Position numbers and translations under genes: made by a program. From Coniochaeta sp. PMI_546 (lineage: Eukaryota; Ascomycota; Sordariomycetes; Coniochaetales; Coniochaetaceae), in contig MU271149.1 in NCBI GenBank assembly GCA_021432605.1, positions 1-64,000 of the forward strand: 64,000 nucleotides of DNA. Reading direction: 5' to 3'. Positions 1-27,619 of this stretch are shown in pieces (position 1 is the stretch's first letter; the number at the start of each line of letters is the position of its first letter). Below the pieces are notes generated by a model, which did no database searches, was not told the DNA's origin, and worked only from the letters and a program-made list of their open reading frames with translations.

Positions 1-95
1 CCCTAACCCTAACCCTAACCCTAACCCTAACCCTAACCCTAACCCTAACCCTAACCCTAACCCTAACCCTAACCCTAACCCTAACCCTAACCCTA
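1..95. repeat. Telomere repeat array
   Basis: Perfect tandem CCCTAA, close to 16 copies, breaking off into unique sequence at about base 96. The C-rich strand runs inward from position 1, so this is the left physical end of a chromosome. TTAGGG on the other strand is the usual telomere repeat of filamentous ascomycetes. Confidence 0.99.
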
Positions 96-6450: not shown

Positions 6451-7004
6451 TACTAATTTCGTCCGTAACGTACCCAAATTTATATTATATACAAATAATA
6501 AATGGGTATTCAACTAGATAAACGAACGGTTTTATATCGTTTAGACGAAAGTTATAATAATTGTTTTTCTAAACGAAAACCTAACGTATATTATCGTAAG
6601 AATAATTATCTATACGATTTACGAACTAACCTTAAACCCTATTCCTATCTCCTAAACTAGTCTTACCGGTTACGCGTTTGGACCGTCTAATTTATTATCG
6701 GTTAATTAACTATCTACTTAGCAAACCGGCGCCGTTTGGATTACCGTTCCCTAGTTATATACGACCCTATCAAACGAAAACCGTCTAACTTCAAACTACT
6801 AGTATTTCATAATTATTAATCGTTATAGCCTACTAATATAAATTTCTACTTTGTCAAATAGGGCGAATAACCTATATCAATCTTATTAAATTTATATATC
6901 GGTATCTAAATACTTTCTATTCCTTAAAATCAAATGCCTTTTACCCTATACTGTTACAAGTAGGTCTTAGCTTTGGCGGTGATTTTAAATACCTTCTACT
7001 ATAA

Positions 7005-7067
7005 GGCTACGTAGAATTACGGATAGGTTACGTAGAATTACGGATAGGCTACGTAGAATTACGGATA
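7005..7067. repeat. Three 21-base tandem repeats
   Basis: Three adjacent copies of a 21-mer starting GGCTACGTAGAATTACGG; the middle copy differs at one base (C to T). The array lies in the RIP block, just before the right Gypsy fossil. No function is apparent. Confidence 0.9.
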
Positions 7068-7199
7068 GCTAAAGGACTTCGGGTTACGTAACTAATTATT
7101 ATAATCGTAATAATTAAGAAAGATTATAATCGGTACGATTATAACTATCGTTATAATCATTATAATTTCTATTAGTATATAAGAAGGAATCCTTCGGGA

Positions 7200-8851
7200 T
7201 TCTATTATAGATAGTTCTTAATTACCTAATAATCAATCTAAATATTCAATCGAGGTTATTATTAAATAAGATACTTATCTTAACGATACCAAAGTAAAGA
7301 CTATTTATTATACCTTAACTTACTTACCTTAAGTAATAAAACTTACCTTCTAATCCTTAACCCGTCTTAGAATCGTTATATTAGACCTTTTGAAATCGAA
7401 GAAATAGTATCGGATATTAATTATAAACTTTACCTATTAAAGATAATAAAAATTTACCCGGTATTTTACGTATTATTATTAGAACTAGTAACGGCTAATA
7501 TTAAACTTTAGAAGTTAGTCGAAATAGAATCTATAGAATTAGAATACGAGATTAAAATAATCTTCGATTTTAGAAAAAAAAGATATTAGATAGAATACTT
7601 AATTAAATAGAAAAACTATAATAATTCGGAGAATATATAAGAGCTAATTAGGAACTTAACGAACTATTAATAATTATATAAATAGTATTATTAATAATAC
7701 TTTAACCTATTTTTAACGAACTATTATTAAAAACGGCGTTCTAATTAACTATGCCGAAAATACTAAAAGACTATACGTCGATTATTACGTCGGATTCCTA
7801 ATAATCTATTTCGTCTAGGTTATTAAGATTCTATAAACCTTAGGAAACTATAAGGGTTCCCCGGGATATTAACGAACTTTTTTATTATCGAAAATATTCG
7901 AAACGTAATAAAGATTCGTCTAATTCTCGTTACGTTTAGAAAAATCGTTTACGACGTTCGCGAAAGAGGTTTTCGGCGTCGGATTTTTCCCGGTCTAGAC
8001 GACGAGATTTTTAGATAATATACGAAATTATTTTTATTAATATATAACGAATTTTTTTTCAAACTATCAAACTTACGGGAGGAAACCGAGATTTTTAAAC
8101 CGTTATAAAATCGACCGCGACGAATATATTTATTATATCGCGTTATATTTTTTAATATTTTATATTTTATCCTTCGAAAATAATAAAATAAATAGGGTAT
8201 AATTTCGAAACCTAATTTATCGATTATAACGGTTAGACGATAACGTTATTTAGTTTTCTTTAACTTTTCTTTAAAAGATTTTATTATATAACCAAATATT
8301 ATATTAATATTACGGGAAATAAAAAAGAAAGAAAATTAACAACTTATTTTAACGTAGATATTAACGTTATTTTATAATCTACCTTAGCTTTCGGAACGAA
8401 AACTTAGAAAAAGGATATCGTATTATAAACTATACTTATTAAACTAATAGGATACGGAACGGAATAACTATTACGGGGTAACGGTTATCTAATTACAAAA
8501 GGATTATTAGGTAACTAGATATATAAAATAGTAAGCTATTAATAGAAGATTATTTGGATTATAGTAAGTTAACTCGCCTTAGATTACTAGTTATAACGAA
8601 AAAGATTATTACGAGAAGAATAATCTACGAAAGAGTATCTTATATTTAAATAGTTATTACTATTAGATAATTACGAGTTGTTTCTATAACGATTAATATA
8701 TAGTTCTTTATATTTAATTACCTACCCTTTCTTAAAATAATAGTCTACTTTTTAACTAGATACGATCTTATTATAACTTACCGTACGTACCTGATTGATT
8801 ATCAATAGACCCTAAATATCGGTTAATATTTAAGAGTATTGATTCGTTATA
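7200..8851 (+). mobile_element. Decayed Ty3/Gypsy chromovirus 3' part
   Basis: On the plus strand at about 7,370-7,690 the sequence reads as the end of a Gypsy integrase followed by a chromodomain: the integrase tail pattern that ends in a 'FxVLLLE'-like motif, then an 'IEYLIK'-type chromodomain strand with its 'NNSEN' loop. This order defines chromoviruses. A long terminal repeat follows at about 8,410-8,851. Everything 5' of the integrase end is missing or unrecognisable. It is a RIP fossil, broken in many places. Confidence 0.65.
8410..8851 (+). repeat. Long terminal repeat of the right Gypsy fossil (inverted mate at 4,127-4,575)
   Basis: Plus-strand partner of the inverted pair. Over the best-aligned part the two copies have almost the same length (383 and 382 bases), so they derive from one family. 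It lies 3' of the chromodomain, in the position of a 3' long terminal repeat. Confidence 0.7.
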
Positions 8852-9259
8852 ATTAACCTTACGAAAGTTCGGTAATAACGATATTTTACTTAATAATACT
8901 TATATCTCGACGGAAAATAAAAGAAAAGGAATAAAAAAGGTAAAAAAATACTCTTAAATATCAAAAGTACAAATAACCTTACGTATACTATTATAAGATT
9001 ATAAGAAGAGTACCTTTTAATAATTAGAAATACGGGTCGGATTATTCTCTTATACGATATAAAAATAAATAACTTACGTTAAATAGCTACAAATCTCTCT
9101 TAAAAGACGTTAGAGAGAAATCGAAAATAAGGGTTTTTGACGTTAAAACGACTAGGAGATTGACTTTGTTTTACGGGTAAAGAGAGGTCTCTATAGTATT
9201 CCTAATATCTAAGGATTTACGACTTTTATATACCCTTTAAATCCCGTGACGGGCTTCTA

Positions 9260-12886: not shown

Positions 12887-13259
12887 AACCTAAAGAAAGT
12901 GCCAAGGTGAGTTCTGCAACGCTTCGATAGCTTCCGTTGATGTGTTGATAAAGTCCAGCTCCTTGTACTGGACAGGATAGAGGAAGTGGTTGCTCTGGCG
13001 AACCAAGCGGCGGCTGTCGTTATCCCTGGGCCACGAGAGCTTTAGTCCATAACCCCGACATGTCTCTCGCCGCTCTCTACAATTAGAACAAGACGGCAGA
13101 GACCGGTCACAGGCAATCTTGCGGTCTAGGAACACAGAGGTAGTCAGCACTGGCAGAGTTGGCGTCGTCTCCGGCGCGTGGTTTGGCTGCCTCACCTGGG
13201 CAATTCCAGCACCGCTTTTGGCCAGGCCTATTTGGCAGGCGATATTTCGTTGCCTGCAT
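12887..13259 (-). pseudogene. Cut-down Zn2Cys6 transcription factor (N-terminal part)
   Basis: Starting at the ATG at 13,259, with an intron at 13,126-13,195 (GTGAGG...CTAG), the product is 100 residues. It holds a perfect Zn2Cys6 binuclear cluster, C-x2-C-x6-C-x6-C-x2-C-x6-C, starting at CWNC (residues 18-21), where the intron falls inside the cluster as is common. A basic SWPRDNDSRR stretch and FINTSTEAIE follow, as at the front of Fungal_trans_2 regulators. Such proteins usually run 400-600 residues, whereas this one stops at 12,887 and I see no activation or regulatory domain after it. It may be a relic or a short DNA-binding protein. It is 1.6 kb from the MFS pump gene. Confidence 0.65.
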
Positions 13260-13927
13260 CGTACACATATCTGCAGGGGACGTAATTATATATGCGTTTT
13301 GAGCAAAGACAGGAGATAGGTACCTCAGGTTTAGCACAGGTGAAGAGTGCGGAAGTAAGCATGGCAGCTGAATAATCACGTTTTCAACGACGGGAGCGAC
13401 AAGGACAAGGGCGTTGGACATTCTTTTGTTGCTAACGCAAGGCAATTTAATACCACTATGTTTTGATGATCCCATGTTAGTTGCGTTCAACATGTACTGG
13501 ACGCCATCAATGACATGAACTATTGTCCCCTTTCACGTAGACGTCTTTTGCTGCAGATTGAAGCGCAGAATGTATCCAAAGTCGTGGTTCCACTAAGGCA
13601 CATCTGCAAGATATGCATTTTGCGAGGACGACAAGCCTGGTCACCAAAGCTCCTTATGTAACCTTGTGATGCAGTTGCGCGTTGGAAGCGCGGGTAGCGC
13701 CGGCGCCTAGATAGGGGCCAAGTGAAGGCAGCAACGTCAGCAGTTACAGTGACGTCACTAAACCTGCTTTGACGACTTGTAGCGACCCCGCACCCTAACT
13801 GTGTTCCAACCCATTTAATAACTTTCCCCCAGTCCATGTCCATTCCTCCTACTACCTTAATCTACTTCTCAACTCCATCCTTTGCACCTTTAATATCGTC
13901 CAAGCAGCACTTCAGAAGCCTTCGACA
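13260..13927. other. Intergenic region between the Zn2Cys6 relic and the PLDc_N gene
   Basis: Open frames here (for example 13,520-13,843 minus) look accidental. The last 100 bases before 13,928 are pyrimidine-rich (CTCAACTCCATCC), as in many fungal promoters. Confidence 0.5.
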
Positions 13928-18389: not shown

Positions 18390-19220
18390 TCATAATCTAC
18401 TCCCCTTCCACTGCGGCTCGCGCTTCTCCGCAAAGGCCTTCAGGCCCTCGATAATGTTCTCCCCTCTCTGCAGCTCAGCAAACTCCTTCTCTAGCGTCCA
18501 ATCGACAGCGCGCTCGACGCTTGCTGTCTCCCAGCCTTGGCGTAGGCCTGCCCGCGTGCAGATGATGGCGTCCGGGCTGTTCCTGGCGATGGCTTCGGCA
18601 AGCTTCACAGCCTCGTCAACGACTTTGTCCTTGGGCACGACCTTGTTAACAAGACCCCACTGGTACATCTCCTGCGCCGTCACGTTACGGCCAGTCAGCG
18701 CAAACTCCGATGCACGCTGCAGGCCAATGGTGCGAATCAGGCGCGGCAGGGCGCCGCCAATAGCAGCAATGCCGCGGCGCACCTCGGGCAGGCCAAAGTA
18801 TGCATCTTCAGCGGCGATAACTAAGTCGCAGTTGACTATAAACTCGGTGCCGCCGCCCATAGCCAGGCCGTTGACGGCGGCGATGACAGGCTTCTTGCCT
18901 AGGCGGCGGCTGAGAGGCTTGAAGGCGGGCGCATTGCCCATCCGAGCCTTCGGGTCGGCATCGTCCGACATGGAGTTGTTCCACTCTTTGAGGTCGGCGC
19001 CGGCTGAGAACGCGCGGCCTGTGCCTGTGATGATAGCGACGGTAAGGGTGTCCTCCTGGTCGAACCATTTCCACACCGAGTCCATCTCCCACTGGCCAGC
19101 CGTTGACATGGCGTTGAGATCCTTGGGGCGGTCCATGCGCACCAGCACGACGCCCTTAGCCGGGAAGGTCAGTTTGAGGAAGGTGGGCGTTGGCGGAGGG
19201 GGAGTGTTGGTGGGCGCCAT
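18390..19220 (-). CDS. Enoyl-CoA hydratase/isomerase family protein, peroxisomal (PTS1 SRL)
   Basis: Single exon, 276 residues from the ATG at 19,220 (three bases further out lies only a GTG). Crotonase fold: the oxyanion-hole loops AFSAGADL (about 70-77) and NGLAMGGGTE (117-126), and both catalytic glutamates of true hydratases are present, Glu126 in GGGTE and Glu146 in FGLPEV. The last residues are KGSRL, a peroxisomal targeting signal type 1, so it should hydrate trans-2-enoyl-CoA, or act on a related thioester, in the peroxisome matrix. It is divergent from a second hydratase at 20,475, and a CCGAGG hexamer lies at 19,572 in its upstream region. The exact substrate cannot be told; methylglutaconyl- or isohexenylglutaconyl-type acyl-CoAs are possible given the AtuA neighbour. 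Confidence 0.9.
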   Translation of the reverse strand: MAPTNTPPPPTPTFLKLTFPAKGVVLVRMDRPKDLNAMSTAGQWEMDSVWKWFDQEDTLTVAIITGTGRAFSAGADLKEWNNSMSDDADPKARMGNAPAFKPLSRRLGKKPVIAAVNGLAMGGGTEFIVNCDLVIAAEDAYFGLPEVRRGIAAIGGALPRLIRTIGLQRASEFALTGRNVTAQEMYQWGLVNKVVPKDKVVDEAVKLAEAIARNSPDAIICTRAGLRQGWETASVERAVDWTLEKEFAELQRGENIIEGLKAFAEKREPQWKGSRL

Positions 19221-19571
19221 CACTGCGGTTGTGTTTATGCGTGCCCGAGTGTGTGTGACAAGCTGGTCAAATGGCTGGTAGAGGTCGAAAGGTTTCAGGT
19301 GAGTAAGATTGAACTGAAATTAGGATGAACGAAAATGGACAGCGGGCGTTGAGATGCCAACGTCAGAGCACAGCACGAGCAGGGTGAATCGTGTTTGACA
19401 CTGAGAAACTGGACGGCGATCGAGATAGGTAGAAACAAAAGAAGCTATTAGACTTGGTATTGAGGAAGTGACGACATGAACTATCTTCATCGAAGATCGA
19501 AGGTACTGTATGAGTGTTGTATTACCACCATCGTAAACCGCAATCAAATCTTGGAGTTTGTGAGCCACGAG

Positions 19572-19577
19572 CCGAGG
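19572..19577. promoter_or_regulatory. CCGAGG hexamer (FarA/FarB-type core) upstream of hydratase 1
   Basis: CCGAGG, the complement of CCTCGG, about 350 bases upstream of the hydratase start at 19,220. CCTCGG is the known core bound by FarA and FarB (Ctf1 family) at fungal beta-oxidation and peroxisome genes. A single hexamer is weak evidence by itself. Confidence 0.4.
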
Positions 19578-20064
19578 GAACTCCATAGGCCCGGTCCGTA
19601 GCAGGATGTATACCACCAGTTCTGATTCAGCATCTACAGAGATAAGACGGCATCATGGTTCTTTCCATATAGCCTCTCAGAATAGCTGGCTAGGAACCTT
19701 AATCTATGACTAAAGGTCGTTCAATATAGTCGCTCGCTCACTGGTACGGGTTATCCCGCCCGCTATAGTCTGGATCTTGGTCTAGAGTCTGACCTCAATT
19801 CCCTGCAACCACACCTCTCGGTATGTGGGCAGAATCTGGGGTCGAGGTGAACTAATGAATCATTTAACCCAGCGAGCCATGTGCATCTCCCTGCGAGACA
19901 ACCCTAGCTTCCTGTATGTCAAGAGAGCTAACACCGAGCGGTTCCCCGCGTCCCCCGCTTCCCCGCACTTGAGGGCGGAGATGAGGTAGCGGAGAGTCAG
20001 TAGCCGTGTGTGCGCTCAAGAAAAGGATCGCAGTTGTGGTGATTCACCGTGGTTATGGAAATGT

Positions 20065-20070
20065 CCTCGG
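20065..20070. promoter_or_regulatory. CCTCGG hexamer upstream of hydratase 2
   Basis: CCTCGG about 405 bases upstream of the ATG at 20,475, in the divergent region shared with hydratase 1. Same reasoning as for the site at 19,572. Confidence 0.4.
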
Positions 20071-20474
20071 CAATGGCTCGTGTATGGTTTGGTTCGGTTC
20101 TCTTAGCTGGCCGAATCGATGCACAAGCAAGAGGCCTTAGGCAGTTGAGGTTGTCACATATCTTGGTAGAGGAGTTTTCGTGGGACGTCCTTCCGAGTCT
20201 CACGGATCGCATTGTTTGGCAATAATACGTACCAAAGGCTATTCTCAAACTAACATCGCGTACACCATACTTGGTAGGTCTTTGATGTTCTATACTACTA
20301 TCACTACCCTTCTTGTCGACATCGCTACTGCTACCAAAGCTACCTCTATTACCTCGCCGACTCTGTCCCTTGTGCCTCCCGGCTCCTGTCACTGAAATCT
20401 CCTCTCCTTCTCCTTCGCTCTCTGCAGCCTCTGTCGCTTCTATCTTTTTTGCCTCCATCCACCTCACTAGCAGC

Positions 20475-21487
20475 ATGTCGGTCCCGCGCACCAAAAACGC
20501 CGTTCCAAGTTGGATTGAGGTGCCCTACCCGCACCTCGAGCACAGCCTCGTGTCCTTCCCCGTTAAGCACGTACTTCTTGTCACCATTAATCGACCCGAT
20601 TACCGCAACTGCCTACCCGTCGAGGCCACAATCGAGCTTGGCGCCTTGTGGAAGTGGTATGACTCGGAGCCCGAGCTACGCTGCGCCGTCATAACGGGTG
20701 CCGGCGACAAGGCCTTCTGTGCCGGCATGGACCTCAAGCAGCGCCTCGACATTCTTAAGACTAACGAGGTTGCACTTGAGTATCCACAGGGTGGATTCGG
20801 CGGCATGTCGAACAGAACAGGAAAGAAGCCAATCGTGGTGGCCTGTAACGGGCACGCACATGGTATGTTCTCTCATGTGCTCTCTGAATTTGGCTCTGAC
20901 TCTCTCTCCCCCTCTCTCTTTCTCTTCCTCTATATATGCATATTCAACCTTCTACATACCCATTCCTTTCATTCGTGATTTGTGATTTGGGAAGGAGACA
21001 AGACTGATAAAGTGCTTAAACAGGGGGTGGCATGGAAATGATCCTCAACGCCGACGTCATCTTTGCCTCCCCTAACGCGGATTTCCGTCTCCCCGAAGTC
21101 ATCCGCGGCGTTTCAGCCCTCGCCGGTGCCTTGCCACGGTGTATGGTGCTCTTTGGAAACCACCGCACTATGGATATCATCCTCACTGGCCGAGTCTTAA
21201 CGCTCAAAGAGGCTGTTGAGTGGGGCTTTGTCAAGGAGGTGGTGCCACAGGACAAGCTGGTGCAGCGCGCCGTTGACTATGCTGCCGAGATCGCGAGCTT
21301 GGCGCCCGACAGCGTCATCATCTCGCGGCTGGCAGCGCGAGAGGCTTGGGAGACGGGCATCAGCCGGGCCACGATGCGTGGCCAAGAGTTATGGGCAGAG
21401 AACATGCTTAAGAGCAAGAATGCATCAGAGGGATTGGCTGCGTACAGGGAGAAGAGGGCTCCGAACTGGTTCCCATCCCACATATAG
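20475..21487 (+). CDS. Second enoyl-CoA hydratase/isomerase family protein
   Basis: Exons 20,475-20,862 and 21,024-21,487 around a 161-base intron (GTATGT...ACAG, rich in CT) give 283 residues. The start MSVPRTKN is chosen over an in-frame upstream start because the fold begins here and the upstream part is low-complexity. Crotonase motifs: FCAGMDL (81-87) and CNGHAHGGGME, which the intron splits. Glu134 (GGGME) and Glu154 (RLPEV) match the two catalytic glutamates. The C-terminus is PSHI, not a good peroxisomal signal; it may work in the cytosol or enter peroxisomes with a partner. Its sequence is clearly different from hydratase 1, so this is not a recent duplicate; the two may take different steps of one pathway. 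Confidence 0.88.
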
Positions 21488-21703
21488 AAGTATGTGTGAA
21501 GTTTTGTTGAGTGCAGGGACTAGACTCAAGTTCCAAAATGATCGCTGCATAATTACGTGATAATGGGGTCATTATTGTGCTCATTGTGCTGTCATTCAAA
21601 AATCAAGCAAGTTATCAGGCTCTGCCTCTTCTAATAACCTACATTGCATGACGAGATGATGAAAATACTACCCATCTATTCCCACACTGATCTAGGTTTC
21701 TTC

Positions 21704-22760
21704 TTAGAGTTTGCTGCTTGTCCCTGCCTGCTTGATCTTAGCCTGTCCGTTCGACAGCGCCACCCTCCCATCGCCCTTGACCACAGTCTCGAAGTGGATG
21801 ACATCGAACACGTCTTCGGACCCGACCTTCCACATGCGTGTCTCGAGCTCATCACCTGGGTACACGACGTTCTTAAAGCGTGCCCTGAATGCCTTGAAAC
21901 GCGCCGGATCCGACCCGCCGAAGACCTTTAGTACGCCGTGCGCCGCGATGTTCCATGTTCCGAGGCCCTGCAAAATGGAGCCCTTGAAGCCAGCGCGCCT
22001 GCCAAACTCCTCGTCGGCGTGCATTGGATTGTAGTCGCCGCAGAGGCGGTACAGCAGTGCTGACTCCGGCGTTGTCTTGAACTCGTAGACTGCGTCGGGG
22101 CTCCGGGCGGGCATCTCAGTGGTCGGCTTACTGGGCCCCCTAGGTCCACCGTAGCCGCCTTGGCCGATGCCAAAGGCCATCGACGACATCTTGACGTAGA
22201 CCTTGCCAGTCTTGATGTCTACAAGTTCCTGCTCGGCCTCCAAGATCATGGCACCGCCTTTATCATAAACACCGATGACTCGGTTGTGGATCTCAAGATC
22301 CAGTCCGTCGGAGCTGACAGGGACGGGGTTGATAATCTCGATGCCACGCTCGCCGTCCACGGAGCGCTGGGCGTCAAAGGGTGGGGTACCGGGGATGTCG
22401 GCGCTGATCATCTTCTCGATGAAGTCGTAGACGTCCTGGTCCGTCGTCTTGAACCCCAGGTTGATGGGGAATGTAGGGAAGGCAGCAAAGTTGGGATGCA
22501 GCTCGTAAAGAAAGTGACGCTCGTCGGCCTGAATACCAATAGCATTGGCCTGAGCGAAACACAATGAGTCAGCGGTTAGCCACTGAGAGGCGGCTTTCAC
22601 GGATCTCTGAGGTGCATCTCACGAATAACAGCACATCCCGGCGATTATAGCTGCACTTTACTGGGGGGTATTTGTACCCAACAGCTTTCCGGAAGTCGAC
22701 ATTGTCATACCTACCAGAGGCATTTCTGATGGGCTTGTCACGGGAACTTGGGAATGCCAT
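21704..22760 (-). CDS. MaoC-type (R)-specific enoyl-CoA hydratase 2, peroxisomal (PTS1 SKL)
   Basis: Exons 22,760-22,623 and 22,549-21,704 with a 73-base intron give 327 residues. This is a double hot-dog protein like the hydratase 2 half of fungal multifunctional enzyme Fox2, but stand-alone: YNRRDVLLFANAIG at the start of the N-terminal hot dog and the hydratase 2 motif GDYNPMHAD with Asp218 and His223 as the catalytic pair, then GFKGSILQGLGT. It ends in SSKL, a strong type 1 peroxisomal signal. It should hydrate 2-enoyl-CoA to the (R)-3-hydroxy form in peroxisomes. A CCTCGG hexamer lies upstream at 23,133. Its presence beside two crotonase-fold hydratases suggests a substrate that ordinary beta-oxidation handles poorly. 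Confidence 0.92.
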
Positions 22761-23132
22761 ATTTGAAGTGACGGGAGAAGATCAGGTGTGGCTGTGCGGA
22801 ATGGAAGAACACATAAGGAGCGAGAGGCCAGAACGCTGAGACCGAACACACCAGGGGAAGAATTGTATGCAGTGAGTTAGTGCACCTTAAATGACAAGTC
22901 AATGAAGGATGATATAGGGCCCAGCACTTGCGGAAGCAGGGATCAGGGCAACGAGATAGTGTTGGAGATGTGGGGAAGGATGTGGAAGGATGAGAAAACT
23001 TAGTCGCTACGTGCGGGGGAGAGAGTCACATATACCGTCAGTGGTCACTGATACACCTCCATCATAATCCGGGCCTTGAGCATGGAACAAAGAGCGGAAG
23101 ACGGGTAAGTCACCCTGGCTTGTATACCTGAC

Positions 23133-23138
23133 CCTCGG
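23133..23138. promoter_or_regulatory. CCTCGG hexamer upstream of the MaoC hydratase
   Basis: CCTCGG in the 620-base region between the MaoC gene start (22,760) and the end of the AtuA-like gene (23,380), about 375 bases from the start codon. Confidence 0.4.
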
Positions 23139-23379
23139 TCGATGACTGTTGACACTGCCCGGCATCCTACTGTCACAGAGCATCATTACATTGCAGCAAC
23201 GATCTGTCAAAACTAACCAAATAACAAATGCACTCGTTCTTGTTAGACGTTTGATCTGATACAATGAAGAACGGCGTTTTTGTACTTTAGAGCAGGCATG
23301 CTTCCCATTGCTTGCTGCTCTTGTAATTATTGAGACAAATAGTGATTTCATAATTAATAGATGTTTAACAGACGTTATG

Positions 23380-25236
23380 TCACAGTTTTACTTGAGTACG
23401 GCCAGCCAATGCCATGTTGTCCCTCCGTCTCTTTTGCTCTTCCTCGAGTAAATCCACTGGCAGATCAACGTGCCTCGCCCGTAGGAACTCGCCGAAGCTT
23501 TTCCCAAACCCATCGATAAGACTACTGCTACTAACGCCCTCCTGCAGGATCCCCTTGACCACGAAATGAACTGCCCACAATCTCGGAAACTCGCACCGCT
23601 CCACAGTGAACTTGTCGCTCCAGTCGTCGCCCAGCAGCTCCATCATGTTGCGACTCGTCATGAATGACTGCAGCCACGGCCAGGCGGAAGCGTTGCGCAC
23701 CCAGAAACCCACATTGGCGTTGCCACCCTTGTCGCCGCTACGCCCAAAGACTAGGTCTCCCAGCGGCCGCCGCACGGTCTTCGATGTCAAGGTGAAAACG
23801 CCCTGCGGCTCGAAGGTACGCTGCTGCGGCGCAGCTGCCGCACATAACTTTTCTGGCCGCGCTTTCACTGGGTACTTCTTGCCCGTGTCGAGCAGGTTGA
23901 CCTCGAGCGGCACCATGATCTGTGGTACTAACGCGGGGAAGTACTTGACGTACGGCCGCGGCTCAAGTGTCCGCCAGTCCATCGACAACGACAAACCGCA
24001 GAAGCCGCTCATTCCATTGTAAAATATCCCCTGCCGGATCTGTGCCATGGTCTCCTTTCTGGCTGCCTGCGCAAAAATGCGGATCTGTACTGTCGCGTCG
24101 GCCTGGCACCTTGGGTTCTCGGCCGCTGTGCCGTAGCGCGCGATACACACGGTGTTGAAGTCGCCGAGATTAAGGCGGCCCAGGATACCCTGCTGGAACT
24201 GCTGGAACTTGAAGTCGGTGTCTAAACCGGCACAGTAGCCGGAAATTTCGACCTGGTATCCACCATGAAGGCATACCGCCAGCTTGGCTGTGGGTGGTGG
24301 TGCCGAGCCTTTCACTCCACTAAGCTTGACACGATCCTTGCCAACTTCGTGTAGCTGCACGTTCTCAATATCGGCGACGACGTCAGGATTCAGGTATTTT
24401 GAGCCCTGGATCTCGTACAGTAGCTGCGCTTTGCAGGTATCGATAGTCACTGCACCGTTGGTGCCCTCGATCTTAGTCACGACAATGGTGCCGTCAGCCG
24501 CGATCTCGCCTATGGGGAAGCCCGGACTAAGCACCATGCGGATCTCGGGCGCACCGCAATAGTTGCCACCCGTGACATACGGCCCGCACTCGATCAGGTG
24601 GCCAGCCATGAGGCCGCCCGCGAGCTGGTCGTAGTCCTCTGGGCCCCAGCCGTGCCACCACGAAGCCAGCCCCATGACGGGACTAGCATCGCAGCACCGT
24701 CCGCAGATGACAATATCAGCGCCCTCTTGAAGCGCCTGGATGATACCCGCCTGACCAATGTAGACATTGGCCGTGAGCATAGACTTCATATCTGAGTCTT
24801 GCAGATACAATCCCGGTCGATCCAAATGATTGATATGCCCAAACTTGTTGTTCCGAACCTGTTCTGTAACATTGTCGCCGGCCACCCACGCAATACGCAC
24901 CCCATTCAGTCCTAACGATTTAAGGTATTTGTCCGTTGCCATGGCCAGACTCTTAGGGTTAAGGCCGCCGCCATCGTGCACGACTTTGATCTTGTTCTTG
25001 ACCAACACCCTGGCCGCGTCGCCGCCGTTCCACGCGAGCTGTTCGAGGAAATTAGCCTCGAAGCCGAGTTCTGGATTCGTCTGCAAATCGATCGCTCGCC
25101 ACGCGAGGTTGAATTCGGCTAAGTAGTCAGCCGTGATGGCGTCAACGTTGCCAAATCTAGCGAGCTCGTAAAGCTGATCGAGGCCATCGTTGATGGCGCC
25201 AGAGCAGTTGCCTATGCGTATGGGACGGCGAGCCAT
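23380..25236 (-). CDS. AtuA-like protein (acyclic terpene utilisation family, DUF1446)
   Basis: One long exon. I start at the ATG at 25,236 (MARRPIRIGNCSGA), giving 618 residues, because this is where family similarity begins; the in-frame ATG 150 bases upstream would add an unlikely leader. The main AtuA domain (PF07287) covers about residues 5-450: GNCSGAINDGLDQ, ITADYLAEFNLAWRA, DGGGLNPK, GRCCDASPVMGLASWWHGW. A C-terminal AtuA-like ferredoxin-fold domain (LGDLVFGRSGDKGGNANVG) covers about 490-590. AtuA belongs to the citronellol/geraniol degradation operon of Pseudomonas; its biochemical step is not settled. The end, QVKL, is at best a weak peroxisomal signal. It shares a 709-base divergent promoter with the acyl-CoA ligase, so the two are probably coexpressed. 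Confidence 0.88.
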   Translation of the reverse strand: MARRPIRIGNCSGAINDGLDQLYELARFGNVDAITADYLAEFNLAWRAIDLQTNPELGFEANFLEQLAWNGGDAARVLVKNKIKVVHDGGGLNPKSLAMATDKYLKSLGLNGVRIAWVAGDNVTEQVRNNKFGHINHLDRPGLYLQDSDMKSMLTANVYIGQAGIIQALQEGADIVICGRCCDASPVMGLASWWHGWGPEDYDQLAGGLMAGHLIECGPYVTGGNYCGAPEIRMVLSPGFPIGEIAADGTIVVTKIEGTNGAVTIDTCKAQLLYEIQGSKYLNPDVVADIENVQLHEVGKDRVKLSGVKGSAPPPTAKLAVCLHGGYQVEISGYCAGLDTDFKFQQFQQGILGRLNLGDFNTVCIARYGTAAENPRCQADATVQIRIFAQAARKETMAQIRQGIFYNGMSGFCGLSLSMDWRTLEPRPYVKYFPALVPQIMVPLEVNLLDTGKKYPVKARPEKLCAAAAPQQRTFEPQGVFTLTSKTVRRPLGDLVFGRSGDKGGNANVGFWVRNASAWPWLQSFMTSRNMMELLGDDWSDKFTVERCEFPRLWAVHFVVKGILQEGVSSSSLIDGFGKSFGEFLRARHVDLPVDLLEEEQKRRRDNMALAGRTQVKL

Positions 25237-25945
25237 AGGTGCGGTCCAGACGAACCAGAGAGACTCAGTTGGACGGACGGCTGTGACAGATGGACTTGTC
25301 AAAAATGTTGCTCCTCGACTTGCTCTCACCCGAATGCTTAGATGCATGCGCAACCAACATTGGCCTCCAACACAGCGCATCAACACCTGAACACCGTGTT
25401 CCTTTCGGCAATTCTCGCGGAGGCGGCCGGCGGGGGAGAAAGAGCCCTCCCCCCTGCGTGGGAAAACTTTCCCAGACCCCTTGTGAAGCTAAGGCGCGAT
25501 GAATCATTGCTGGTGGGGTGGGCAAGTCTTGGGGTAATTAACCTTCTCGTTCATTCGCACAATGAGCGGGAAATGTACAAACCACACCGAAATCGTGGCA
25601 ATGGTACGAATACATCCACCGAAGCCCATGTCTCTATGCCGTAGATGAGGTGTGTTAATGGGCGCAGGAGAGGGGTCTCATCGTCACCTCGAAGCTTTGC
25701 CACTAAGAGACAAATGAATCATTGAGTGTAGGAGGACCAGGTTAACGACTTCCCGAATCCCTAGACTTGCGTAAGTTCGATGCATATCTTACGGTAAATC
25801 AAGAAACTCGGGCAAAAGCAGAATTAGTCTCATGGTCTACCGTATGTCCGAGGCTTTGAGCTGCGCTGCTGCATAGTCAACAAAAGATAGAGAGGGATCT
25901 TTCCTCAGCTCGTGTTGCGCGCAATCACACACCCAAACCGCCACA
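25237..25945. promoter_or_regulatory. Divergent promoter region between AtuA-like gene and acyl-CoA ligase
   Basis: 709 bases between two start codons pointing apart. It contains GC-rich direct and inverted GGCGG/CCCCC-type tracts around 25,415-25,460 and a CCGAGG hexamer at 25,848-25,853, about 95 bases before the ligase start, a typical activator distance. Confidence 0.55.
25848..25853. promoter_or_regulatory. CCGAGG hexamer near the ligase start
   Basis: Best placed of the four CCTCGG/CCGAGG hexamers, about 95 bases upstream of the ligase ATG at 25,946. Confidence 0.45.
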
Positions 25946-27619
25946 ATGAGAATTCACAGGGGCGAGACTATCGCTATCCCGCGGGACCAGAACCTCACTG
26001 AGCTGCTGCACTCCTCGGCCTTTCCGCTACTGCCTGACTCGCACCTTATTGCTACGGATAGCTTAACCAACCGTAGCATCACGATCGGCGAGCTTCGAGA
26101 GCGCGCAGGCCGCATCGCGGGGGGCTTGTATGATGAGTTCCACCCCATCGACCAGGCGCGGTGGGCCATTGTTCTGCCTAACAGTGTCGAGTACCTCGAA
26201 ATCTTCCAGGCTGTACTGTGGACCGGCGGCGTTGGCTGCCCTATCAACTACGCCCTCAAAGCCATAGAGATTGGCCATGCTATCACCGTCTCCAGGCCGC
26301 ACTATATCGTCGTCTACGGCCCCGCCGTGTCGATGGTGCTTGAAGCCGTTGATATTGCCGCTAAAGAGCTGGCAGAGAAGGGGAACAAGTGGCAGAGACC
26401 GGCCATAGTCACAATGATCGCCAAGGCCGCCGGTATCAAGCACATCCCGGATGACTTTTACAGAGCCGAGCGCCTACCGATTCCGCATTACAATGACACG
26501 TCAAAGCGCTTGGCCTCGATACATCTCTCGTCAGGCACGACCGGAAAGCCCAAGGGTGTCGAGCTTACACACTTCAACTTTGTTGCCAACTGTCATCAAC
26601 TCGTCTCTCATGACCCCAAACAGTTTGGACCGGCCTCCAGGACTGTAGCTTTCACGCCGTGGGCGCACATTGCCATGACGACGGCGCCGCTCTTTCTAGG
26701 GCCCTACAGCGGGATGTTTCACCACGCCATGCCTCAGTACAGCCCCGAGAAGCTCGGCGAGCAAGTGGCGTCCAACCATGCGACTAACTTCCAGGGCGTG
26801 CCTAGCGTCGTGCTCACCCTGGCCAACTCGGACCTCACGTCGAGATACGACTTCTCCCACGCCCAGACCATTATGGTGGGTGGCGCGCCGCTGAAACAGA
26901 ACCTCATAGACAGATTGTTGAGCAAGGCGCCGTGGAAGTTGAGGCAGGTGTACGGCATGACTGAGGCGGCGGGATATGTCGCATACCAGAAACTCGACGA
27001 GGAGCTGCCCGAAGGAGTAGTGGGCAAGCTTCTACCCAATATCGAGGCACGATTAATGAGGGAGGGTAGCAGTGATGAAGTCGCTGTCGGCGAAGCAGGA
27101 GAACTATGGCTACGAGGACCCAATATCACCCGTGGCTACGCGTTTGACGAGGATGCAAACGACCAGGCATTCCCCCTGCCGGGCTGGTACAACACGGGAG
27201 ATGTCTGCAAGATCGATGACCATGGCAGGGTCAGTATCGTGGGGAGAACGAAGGAACTTATCAAGTACAAAGGCTTTCAAGTGGCGCCGGCTGAACTCGA
27301 GAGCTACCTCAACTCACACCCTCATGTCGTCGAGGGTGGTGTCGGTGCCACCTGGGACGAGAGCCAGCTGACCGAGCTGCCAACGGCCTGGGTTGTGCTA
27401 AGAGATCACATCAAGGGTGACGAGGAGACAAGGAAGGCCCTCATGGATATCCACCGCAACGTCGACGAGCAGGTCAGCGGGTATAAGAAGCTGCGGGGAG
27501 GTGTCTGGCACATTCCGGCCCTGCCCAAGAATCCAACGGGCAAGATCCTGAGGAAAGTCATGGTCCAGATGAGAGACGGGTTGTCGTCATTAGAGCATAA
27601 GATCATGTCCAAGCTGTAG
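25946..27619 (+). CDS. Acyl-CoA ligase (AMP-binding, 4CL-like), peroxisomal (PTS1 SKL)
   Basis: Single exon, 557 residues. ANL-superfamily motifs are complete: the phosphate loop SSGTTGKPKG (about 197-206), YGMTEAAG, GWYNTGD, the hinge GRTKELIKYKGFQVAP and the catalytic lysine in NPTGKILRK near the end. It ends in MSKL, a peroxisomal type 1 signal. The layout is that of 4-coumarate-CoA-ligase-like fungal enzymes that activate aromatic, medium-chain or isoprenoid acids to CoA thioesters. It would supply the first step of the cluster, making the CoA ester that the hydratases act on. Substrate cannot be read from the sequence with confidence. Confidence 0.93.
   Translation: MRIHRGETIAIPRDQNLTELLHSSAFPLLPDSHLIATDSLTNRSITIGELRERAGRIAGGLYDEFHPIDQARWAIVLPNSVEYLEIFQAVLWTGGVGCPINYALKAIEIGHAITVSRPHYIVVYGPAVSMVLEAVDIAAKELAEKGNKWQRPAIVTMIAKAAGIKHIPDDFYRAERLPIPHYNDTSKRLASIHLSSGTTGKPKGVELTHFNFVANCHQLVSHDPKQFGPASRTVAFTPWAHIAMTTAPLFLGPYSGMFHHAMPQYSPEKLGEQVASNHATNFQGVPSVVLTLANSDLTSRYDFSHAQTIMVGGAPLKQNLIDRLLSKAPWKLRQVYGMTEAAGYVAYQKLDEELPEGVVGKLLPNIEARLMREGSSDEVAVGEAGELWLRGPNITRGYAFDEDANDQAFPLPGWYNTGDVCKIDDHGRVSIVGRTKELIKYKGFQVAPAELESYLNSHPHVVEGGVGATWDESQLTELPTAWVVLRDHIKGDEETRKALMDIHRNVDEQVSGYKKLRGGVWHIPALPKNPTGKILRKVMVQMRDGLSSLEHKIMSKL

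What the first reader, a model, noticed from the sequence alone, without database searches (positions are those of the whole stretch)
18390..27619. Subtelomeric peroxisomal acid-degradation cluster with an AtuA-like protein
Five adjacent genes combine into one route: an acyl-CoA ligase (SKL end), two distinct crotonase-fold hydratases (one with SRL), a MaoC hydratase 2 (SKL) and an AtuA-like protein, with an MFS pump beside them. Directly seen: motifs, catalytic residues and peroxisomal signals. Known: AtuA belongs to bacterial geraniol/citronellol degradation and has no settled reaction; such a set has both (S)- and (R)-type hydratases, unusual for plain fatty acids. Inference: a dispensable pathway for a branched, isoprenoid or plant-derived acid. 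Missing members (acyl-CoA oxidase, carboxylase, thiolase) would be needed from elsewhere.
Basis: partly seen in the sequence, partly recalled or inferred. Interest (0 to 1): 0.75.

Follow-up and report, generated by a model that had tools for sequence, protein, structure and literature searches.

The report
Fungal cluster for breaking branched acids
Near the end of a fungal chromosome lie five neighbouring genes, kept together in many other moulds, that look like a kit for breaking down acids whose side branch blocks ordinary fat burning, and the long-puzzling member of the kit now looks like the enzyme that cuts at the blocking carbon.

Summary
Telomere repeats lie at 1-95, and five adjacent genes occupy 18,390-27,619: two crotonases, a hydratase 2, an AtuA protein and an acyl-CoA ligase, in Coniochaeta sp. 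PMI_546. AtuA and ligase homologues share 36 contig lengths besides this one, seven of them under 14 kb. Thyridium and Neonectria magnoliae locus tags run ligase, AtuA, two genes, crotonase 1. Peroxisomal tails are conserved in the ligase and crotonase 1.

Best reading: a peroxisomal route for acids that already carry a beta-branch with a second carboxylate (CoA activation, dehydrogenation by enzymes from elsewhere, hydration to a tertiary alcohol, AtuA cleavage). The substrate is unknown; dispensability and induction are untested. This is a new, eukaryotic, carboxylase-free variant of a known kind.

The parts
1..95 (.). telomere repeat (CCCTAA)15.8; left end of contig C7
14904..17133 (-). TRI12-type MFS transporter in several exons; beside the cluster, membership not shown
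   Evidence: a TRI12 MFS also lies near the second AtuA locus of this genome
18390..19220 (-). ECH1: SidH-like crotonase, 276 aa, tail SRL, Glu126/Glu146
   Evidence: (SidH 7oeq 281.6 bits, next 143.2)
20475..20862 (+). ECH2 exon 1 (SidH-like crotonase, 283 aa in all)
21024..21487 (+). ECH2 exon 2, tail SHI, Glu134/Glu154
22623..22760 (-). MaoC (hydratase 2) exon 1
   Evidence: homologous start in P0075
21704..22549 (-). MaoC (hydratase 2) exon 2, tail SKL, Asp218/His223
23380..25236 (-). AtuA, 618 aa: CmlA-like body (about 2-450) and CmlB-like ferredoxin-fold C-terminal domain; tail VKL
25237..25945 (.). shared intergenic region between the divergent AtuA and ligase genes (possible two-way promoter, inferred)
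25946..27619 (+). acyl-CoA (AMP-forming) ligase, 557 aa, tail SKL

Best explanation
The five genes encode a peroxisomal catabolic route for an acid whose beta-carbon carries a branch, so that ordinary beta-oxidation stops there, and which already bears a second carboxylate one carbon from that branch point (for example a ring-opened or 3-alkyl-glutarate-like diacid). Steps: (1) the ligase makes the CoA ester; (2) an acyl-CoA dehydrogenase or oxidase from elsewhere in the genome sets the double bond; (3) the SidH-like crotonase ECH1 (or ECH2) adds water to the trisubstituted enoyl-CoA, giving a tertiary 3-hydroxyacyl-CoA; (4) AtuA cleaves the bond between the tertiary carbinol and the carbon bearing the free carboxylate, a retro-aldol lyase as in ThnQS and citramalate lyase, leaving a 3-oxoacyl-CoA; (5) a thiolase from elsewhere finishes; ECH2 and MaoC serve further rounds. 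Shown by computation here: gene content, conservation of the neighbourhood, tails, predicted fold of AtuA, absence of a carboxylase gene in the cluster. Inferred: the order of steps, the class of substrate and the AtuA reaction in this fungus.
Against: No substrate, expression or enzyme data for any member. A shared fold is not a shared reaction, and the sequence link to CmlA is weak (E 0.0014 overall; its two stretches have i-E 0.36 and 42, and Y274, E275 and K318 lie in the weaker one). The ThnQS activity rests on unpublished results cited in a review. In F. zealandicum the ligase is far from AtuA-ECH1 (tags 9453 against 1610/1607); in Xylariaceae FL1651, FL1019 and FL0255 the listed ligase is on a different contig from AtuA; in Xylaria grammica ligase (g1219) and ECH2 (g4356) are far apart. 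Contig lengths belong to a protein cluster's longest contig, so they are indirect evidence, and 83 of 120 AtuA rows show no shared length with the ligase list, which is itself capped at 120. The ACOX search found nothing here, but its controls rang nowhere either. The trees are rooted at the midpoint, so 'sister' depends on rooting; 15 other bacterial loci outside that clade also showed no carboxylase, some with short flanks.
Confidence: 0.55

Rival explanations
1. Classical Atu chemistry in a fungus: a citronellic/geranic-type acid is activated, carboxylated by the genome's one MCC-like carboxylase, hydrated and cleaved by AtuA.
For: AtuA homology; the bacterial Atu-like loci read also hold an AMP ligase and a crotonase; PF01039 match at C5:2440235.
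Against: No carboxylase in the cluster, and none at the nearest bacterial loci; the C5 carboxyltransferase lies near an acyl-CoA dehydrogenase domain, which looks like leucine breakdown (recalled: a mitochondrial pathway). O. piceae has the ligase (66%) yet did not grow on a monoterpene mixture (PMC3680317, passage), though that mixture held no acyclic acid.
Confidence: 0.12
2. Salvage of mevalonate-type acids (anhydromevalonate from hydroxamate siderophores, 3-hydroxy-3-methylglutarate, 3-methylglutaconate): ligase, SidH-like hydration, then AtuA cleavage to acetoacetyl-CoA and acetate.
For: ECH1 and ECH2 are SidH-like; HMG-CoA is the proposed substrate of Fer4, an enoyl-CoA hydratase of siderophore biosynthesis (PMC10098057, passages); SidI, SidH and SidF are peroxisomal (PMC3709128, passages).
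Against: The likely siderophore SidH of this genome is another gene (C8:1790659-1791494) beside a SidF-type PF13523 gene; no alcohol or aldehyde dehydrogenase among the 25 window ORFs scanned; hydratase 2 and a second crotonase would have no clear job.
Confidence: 0.14
3. A biosynthetic cassette that tailors an acyl chain in peroxisomes, like SidI-SidH or the AK-toxin genes (recalled), with the TRI12 MFS as exporter.
For: SidH likeness; MFS beside it; peroxisomal tails.
Against: No polyketide synthase, NRPS, acyltransferase or P450 domain among the 25 window ORFs scanned (not every ORF was scanned); a lyase and two kinds of hydratase point to breakdown; ECH1 is very conserved (82-100% in 54 of 54 rows).
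Confidence: 0.09
4. C5-diacid breakdown (itaconate, mesaconate, citramalate): ligase, MaoC hydratase, AtuA as citramalyl lyase.
For: Fold match to citramalate lyase; a DUF1446 gene lies beside methylaspartate ammonia-lyase in enterobacteria (PMC4682846, passage).
Against: The MaoC is of the MFE-2 hydratase-2 kind, not the itaconyl-CoA hydratase kind (recalled); two SidH-like crotonases are unexplained.
Confidence: 0.06

Closest known systems
thn operon of anaerobic naphthalene degradation (N47, NaphS2), with AtuA-like lyase ThnQS
   Same: AtuA-like lyase with crotonases, MaoC proteins and CoA handling, and no carboxylase in its table; a hydratase makes a tertiary alcohol that the lyase then cleaves (PMC12016498, sections 12 part 1 and 13)
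   Different: Anaerobic bacteria; aryl-CoA reductases, dehydrogenases and thiolases in the operon; lyase of two genes; CoA-transferase in place of a ligase; no peroxisome. ThnQ and ThnS were not fetched or aligned here
Atu (acyclic terpene utilisation) cluster of pseudomonads and actinobacteria
   Same: AtuA homologue (30-38% in the 40 plasmid rows listed, 34-42% in the 80 genome rows), AMP ligase, crotonase
   Different: Atu-type loci have a biotin carboxylase and dehydrogenases (atuABCDEFGH as described in PMC4847356, passages); none here; MaoC and a second crotonase are extra
Citramalate lyase CmlAB (PDB 9erq, 9evf)
   Different: Window AtuA is a single chain; 16% identity in the structural alignment; activity untested; 9evf holds ADP and pyruvate, so nucleotide use by AtuA is an open question
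SidI-SidH-SidF peroxisomal siderophore pathway
   Same: Acyl-CoA ligase plus SidH-type hydratase with PTS1 tails
   Different: No SidF in this cluster; the likely sidH-sidF pair is on contig C8. Kinship of the window ligase to SidI was not tested

Membership tests
AtuA family (PF07287 + PF23544) | Both domains over the curated cut-offs | tested here: met
   509.1 bits (cut-off 22.8) and 56.4 bits (cut-off 27)
Atu pathway cluster | Geranyl-CoA carboxylase subunits in the cluster | tested here: not met
   No PF01039 match on the window; the genome search reports matches only at C5:2440235-2441476 and C3:85062-86772
Atu pathway cluster | Acyl-CoA dehydrogenase (AtuD) and SDRs (AtuB, AtuG) in the cluster | tested here: not met
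   PF02770: none of 9 matches on the window; no SDR among the 25 window ORFs scanned
Thn-type carboxylase-free AtuA lyase route | AtuA-like lyase with CoA activation and hydratases, no carboxylase | tested here: met
Thn-type carboxylase-free AtuA lyase route | Lyase cleaves a tertiary beta-hydroxy acyl-CoA | not testable with these tools
   needs an enzyme assay
Citramalate lyase (CmlAB) superfamily | CmlA fold and CmlB fold | tested here: met
Citramalate lyase (CmlAB) superfamily | Cleaves citramalate to pyruvate and an acetate unit | not testable with these tools
   needs an enzyme assay
SidH (siderophore mevalonyl-CoA hydratase) | Nearest solved relative is SidH | tested here: met
SidH (siderophore mevalonyl-CoA hydratase) | Lies with sidF or other siderophore genes | tested here: not met
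   The PF13523 gene lies beside the C8 SidH-like gene (51% to ECH1 over 96-276), and none was seen here
Peroxisomal matrix proteins (PTS1) | Conserved C-terminal PTS1 tripeptide on ligase and ECH1 | tested here: met
   ligase 114 of 120, ECH1 54 of 54
Peroxisomal matrix proteins (PTS1) | PTS1 on AtuA and ECH2 | tested here: inconclusive
   AtuA strict pattern 46 of 120, any [KRH][LM] 84 of 120; ECH2 SHL 48, SHI 9, SYL 9 of 66
Peroxisomal matrix proteins (PTS1) | Conserved PTS1 on MaoC | tested here: inconclusive
   SKL in the window; the two merged models end VKL and NKL; no wider set was fetched

The most novel reading that the evidence does not exclude
Many filamentous ascomycetes carry, in peroxisomes, a complete lyase bypass for acids with a blocked (tertiary) beta-carbon: a eukaryotic, aerobic counterpart of the naphthalene ring-II lyase route, which needs no carboxylation and works on ring-opened plant diacids (terpenoid, resin or lignin derived). 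AtuA would be a citramalate-lyase-type C-C lyase that sits on one chain and is imported into peroxisomes.
Probability: 0.4. Interest if true: 0.75.

Novelty: new variant of a known kind. Interest (0 to 1): 0.6.

Why it matters
AtuA-family proteins occur in many fungi but are annotated only as unknown (DUF1446) or 'terpene utilisation'. If the model is right, one testable reaction (tertiary-alcohol C-C cleavage) explains a gene cluster found, at least in part, in four classes of ascomycetes, gives fungal AtuA a first function, and shows how peroxisomes deal with branch points that stop beta-oxidation. It would also tie citramalate lyase, bacterial Atu and naphthalene degradation together as one lyase superfamily.

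Tried and rejected
Grosmannia monoterpene link: ligase CMQ_6959 changes 1107-fold on monoterpenes (PMC4368105 Table 3, passage), but no row named Grosmannia is among the 120 listed hits for AtuA, for the ligase or for the crotonases (many rows have no name), so orthology is not shown. Wang et al. 2014 on limonene is not held; nothing of it was seen. Limonene ring cleavage in Castellaniella defragrans is described as working without atu genes (PMC4109377, passages), so AtuA is not a marker of limonene use.

Literature: searches (1 paper; 7; 4; 30 of 37 listed) on AtuA, DUF1446 and acyclic terpene utilisation with fungal words showed no paper describing this fungal cluster. I looked at passages only: PMC5371717, PMC4682846, PMC5595782, PMC12148953, PMC3948071, all mentions in passing; also PMC8120277. 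One search listed 25 of 67 papers, none of those with 'citramalate lyase'; one search listed 15 of 166, of which I looked at passages of PMC8473912 (citramalate lyase named, no structure of the AtuA type). No paper on 9evf was found in these listings.

Solved structures by single sequence: nothing below E 0.28 for AtuA; only the profile and the fold search found 9erq/9evf. Foldseek's second match under E 0.001, an aspartate kinase (3aaw, TM 0.18 by query length), was not taken as kinship.

ABM partner: an ABM domain follows the ligase in gene models P0132, P0195 and P0240; none in the window, but one lies between two AtuA paralogues on C2. Left out of the model.

MaoC and ABM in bacteria: 0 of 80 AtuA loci matched the fungal MaoC or ABM by tblastn at 1e-6; distant MaoC could be missed. 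So I found no bacterial locus with the fungal gene set.

Acyl-CoA oxidase: nothing found and the controls were silent, so no conclusion.

VIA list: the rows after 9evf_A centre on the ferredoxin-like part near 324-432 and were not used.

Full report
What is there. The window starts with telomere repeats and is the left end of contig C7 (2,482,315 bases) of a 33.5 Mb genome. Between 18,390 and 27,619 lie five genes, in order ECH1(-), ECH2(+), MaoC(-), AtuA(-), ligase(+), with Pfam matches over the cut-offs. ECH2 and MaoC have one intron each. ECH1 and ECH2 are 40% identical. Both crotonases keep the two glutamates of crotonase, and MaoC keeps the Asp/His pair of hydratase 2 (positions; the meaning of these residues is recalled).

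Is it a conserved unit? Fungal genomes could not be scanned directly, so I used three protein searches (only the best 120 hits of each are listed). Each row gives the longest contig that holds the protein. The AtuA and ligase lists share 37 lengths, own contig included; seven contigs are under 14 kb, so there the genes must be close. The crotonase list splits into 54 ECH1-type rows (82-100% identity) and 66 ECH2-type rows (70-100%). Shared lengths, own included, are 19 for AtuA/ECH1, 20 for AtuA/ECH2, 17 for ligase/ECH1, 16 for ligase/ECH2 and 8 for ECH1/ECH2; five contigs hold all four genes and 13 hold three (one row without a contig was left out). Locus tags agree. Thyridium has ligase 3416, AtuA 3417, ECH1 3420; Neonectria magnoliae 6333, 6334, 6337. 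AtuA and ligase are neighbours in 7 of 8 fungi with readable tags of one series; AtuA and ECH1 are three genes apart in 6 of 7 and five apart in one; AtuA and ECH2 are two apart in 3 of 3. Ligase and a crotonase are direct neighbours in Verruconis gallopava (ECH2, tags 06385/06386) and Polytolypa hystricis (ECH1, 04789/04788), so the order differs there. MaoC is merged with AtuA in the gene models P0075 and P0112. Exceptions: Fusarium zealandicum (ligase elsewhere), Xylariaceae FL1651, FL1019 and FL0255 (ligase on another contig), and Xylaria grammica (ligase g1219, ECH2 g4356). Contigs with at least two of the genes come from Sordariomycetes, Dothideomycetes, Eurotiomycetes and Leotiomycetes (class placement recalled).

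Where it works. Ligase tails fit a PTS1 pattern in 114 of 120 and ECH1 tails in 54 of 54. ECH2 ends SHL in 48 of 66. AtuA ends [KRH][LM] in 84 of 120 and strictly [SACP][KRH][LM] in 46, against 0 of 5 bacterial AtuAs looked at. MaoC ends SKL here, but VKL and NKL in the two merged models. The PTS1 definition and the activity of variants such as ARL, AKL and PKL are from PMC3709128 (passages). The ligase and ECH1 are thus very likely peroxisomal, MaoC likely, AtuA and ECH2 probably.

Why no carboxylase. Of 80 bacterial AtuA loci, 57 have a biotin carboxylase or carboxyltransferase within the fetched flanks; 13 have none with at least 5 kb on both sides, and 10 have none with shorter flanks. In a tree of 33 rows fungal AtuAs form one group (100/99), split into the cluster type and four paralogues of this genome, and lie beside a bacterial group (97/95; Streptomyces, Saccharopolyspora, Pseudonocardia, Gordonia, Sphingobium) without carboxylase. 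In the larger tree that bacterial group has eight loci, none with a carboxylase, five of them with full flanks. In Gordonia (L064) and Sphingobium (L126), 2 of the 5 loci whose neighbours were scanned in part, a CoA-transferase III follows AtuA. The root of these trees is a midpoint, so I claim nearness, not direction; 15 loci elsewhere in the tree also lack a visible carboxylase. In the window's genome the carboxyltransferase matches are on C3 (long frame, taken as acetyl-CoA carboxylase) and on C5 near an acyl-CoA dehydrogenase domain, which fits leucine breakdown. So carboxylation is probably not a step of this route: the acid brings its second carboxylate along.

What the crotonases add. 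SidH is the nearest solved relative of ECH1 and ECH2 (281.6 and 221.2 bits; next 143.2 and 146.8). SidH is the mevalonyl-CoA hydratase of siderophore synthesis, so this subfamily is known to act on a 3-hydroxy-3-methyl acyl-CoA, the kind of tertiary alcohol an AtuA lyase needs. The genome's likely siderophore SidH is on C8 beside a SidF-type gene, so the cluster pair is a separate branch.

Model and its limits. Ligase, dehydrogenation, hydration by ECH1, cleavage by AtuA, thiolysis; ECH2 and MaoC for later rounds. Thiolase-domain matches (12, five of them over 200 bits) and acyl-CoA dehydrogenase-domain matches (9, eight over the cut-off) occur elsewhere in the genome; an oxidase could not be tested. 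The substrate is not known. Monoterpene evidence from Grosmannia concerns a ligase whose orthology I could not show, and O. piceae, which has the ligase at 66%, did not grow on a monoterpene mixture. 'Dispensable' remains a guess from position.

Verdict. It is a new eukaryotic, carboxylase-free variant of AtuA-based catabolism with a clear bench test.

Noticed in passing
G000 contig C2:2,269,772-2,284,744 (L009, L010): Second AtuA locus of the same genome: TRI12-type MFS, two AtuA paralogues, and between them an ABM-domain protein 47% identical to the ABM half that follows the ligase in Ilyonectria P0195.
   Followed up: partly
P0132, P0195, P0240 (Xylariales, Ilyonectria, Colletotrichum): Gene models in which the cluster ligase runs on into an ABM-domain protein: an extra pathway member in some fungi, or merged neighbouring genes.
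   Followed up: partly
G000 contig C7:2,438,223-2,438,705 (L016, L017): Weak AtuA match near the other end of the same contig, beside an isocitrate/isopropylmalate dehydrogenase-type gene and an SGL-domain gene.
   Followed up: no
window 12890-13282 (-): Zn2Cys6 binuclear cluster domain near the MFS; a possible regulator of the cluster.
   Followed up: no
window 7001-9000: Very AT-rich stretch (GC 0.24-0.27) between telomere and genes, as might be left by repeat-induced mutation (inferred).
   Followed up: no
L064 and L126: Bacterial AtuA followed directly by a CoA-transferase III gene; L126 adds ligases, acyl-CoA dehydrogenases and an old-yellow-enzyme-type gene, which recalls the thn operon.
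   Followed up: partly
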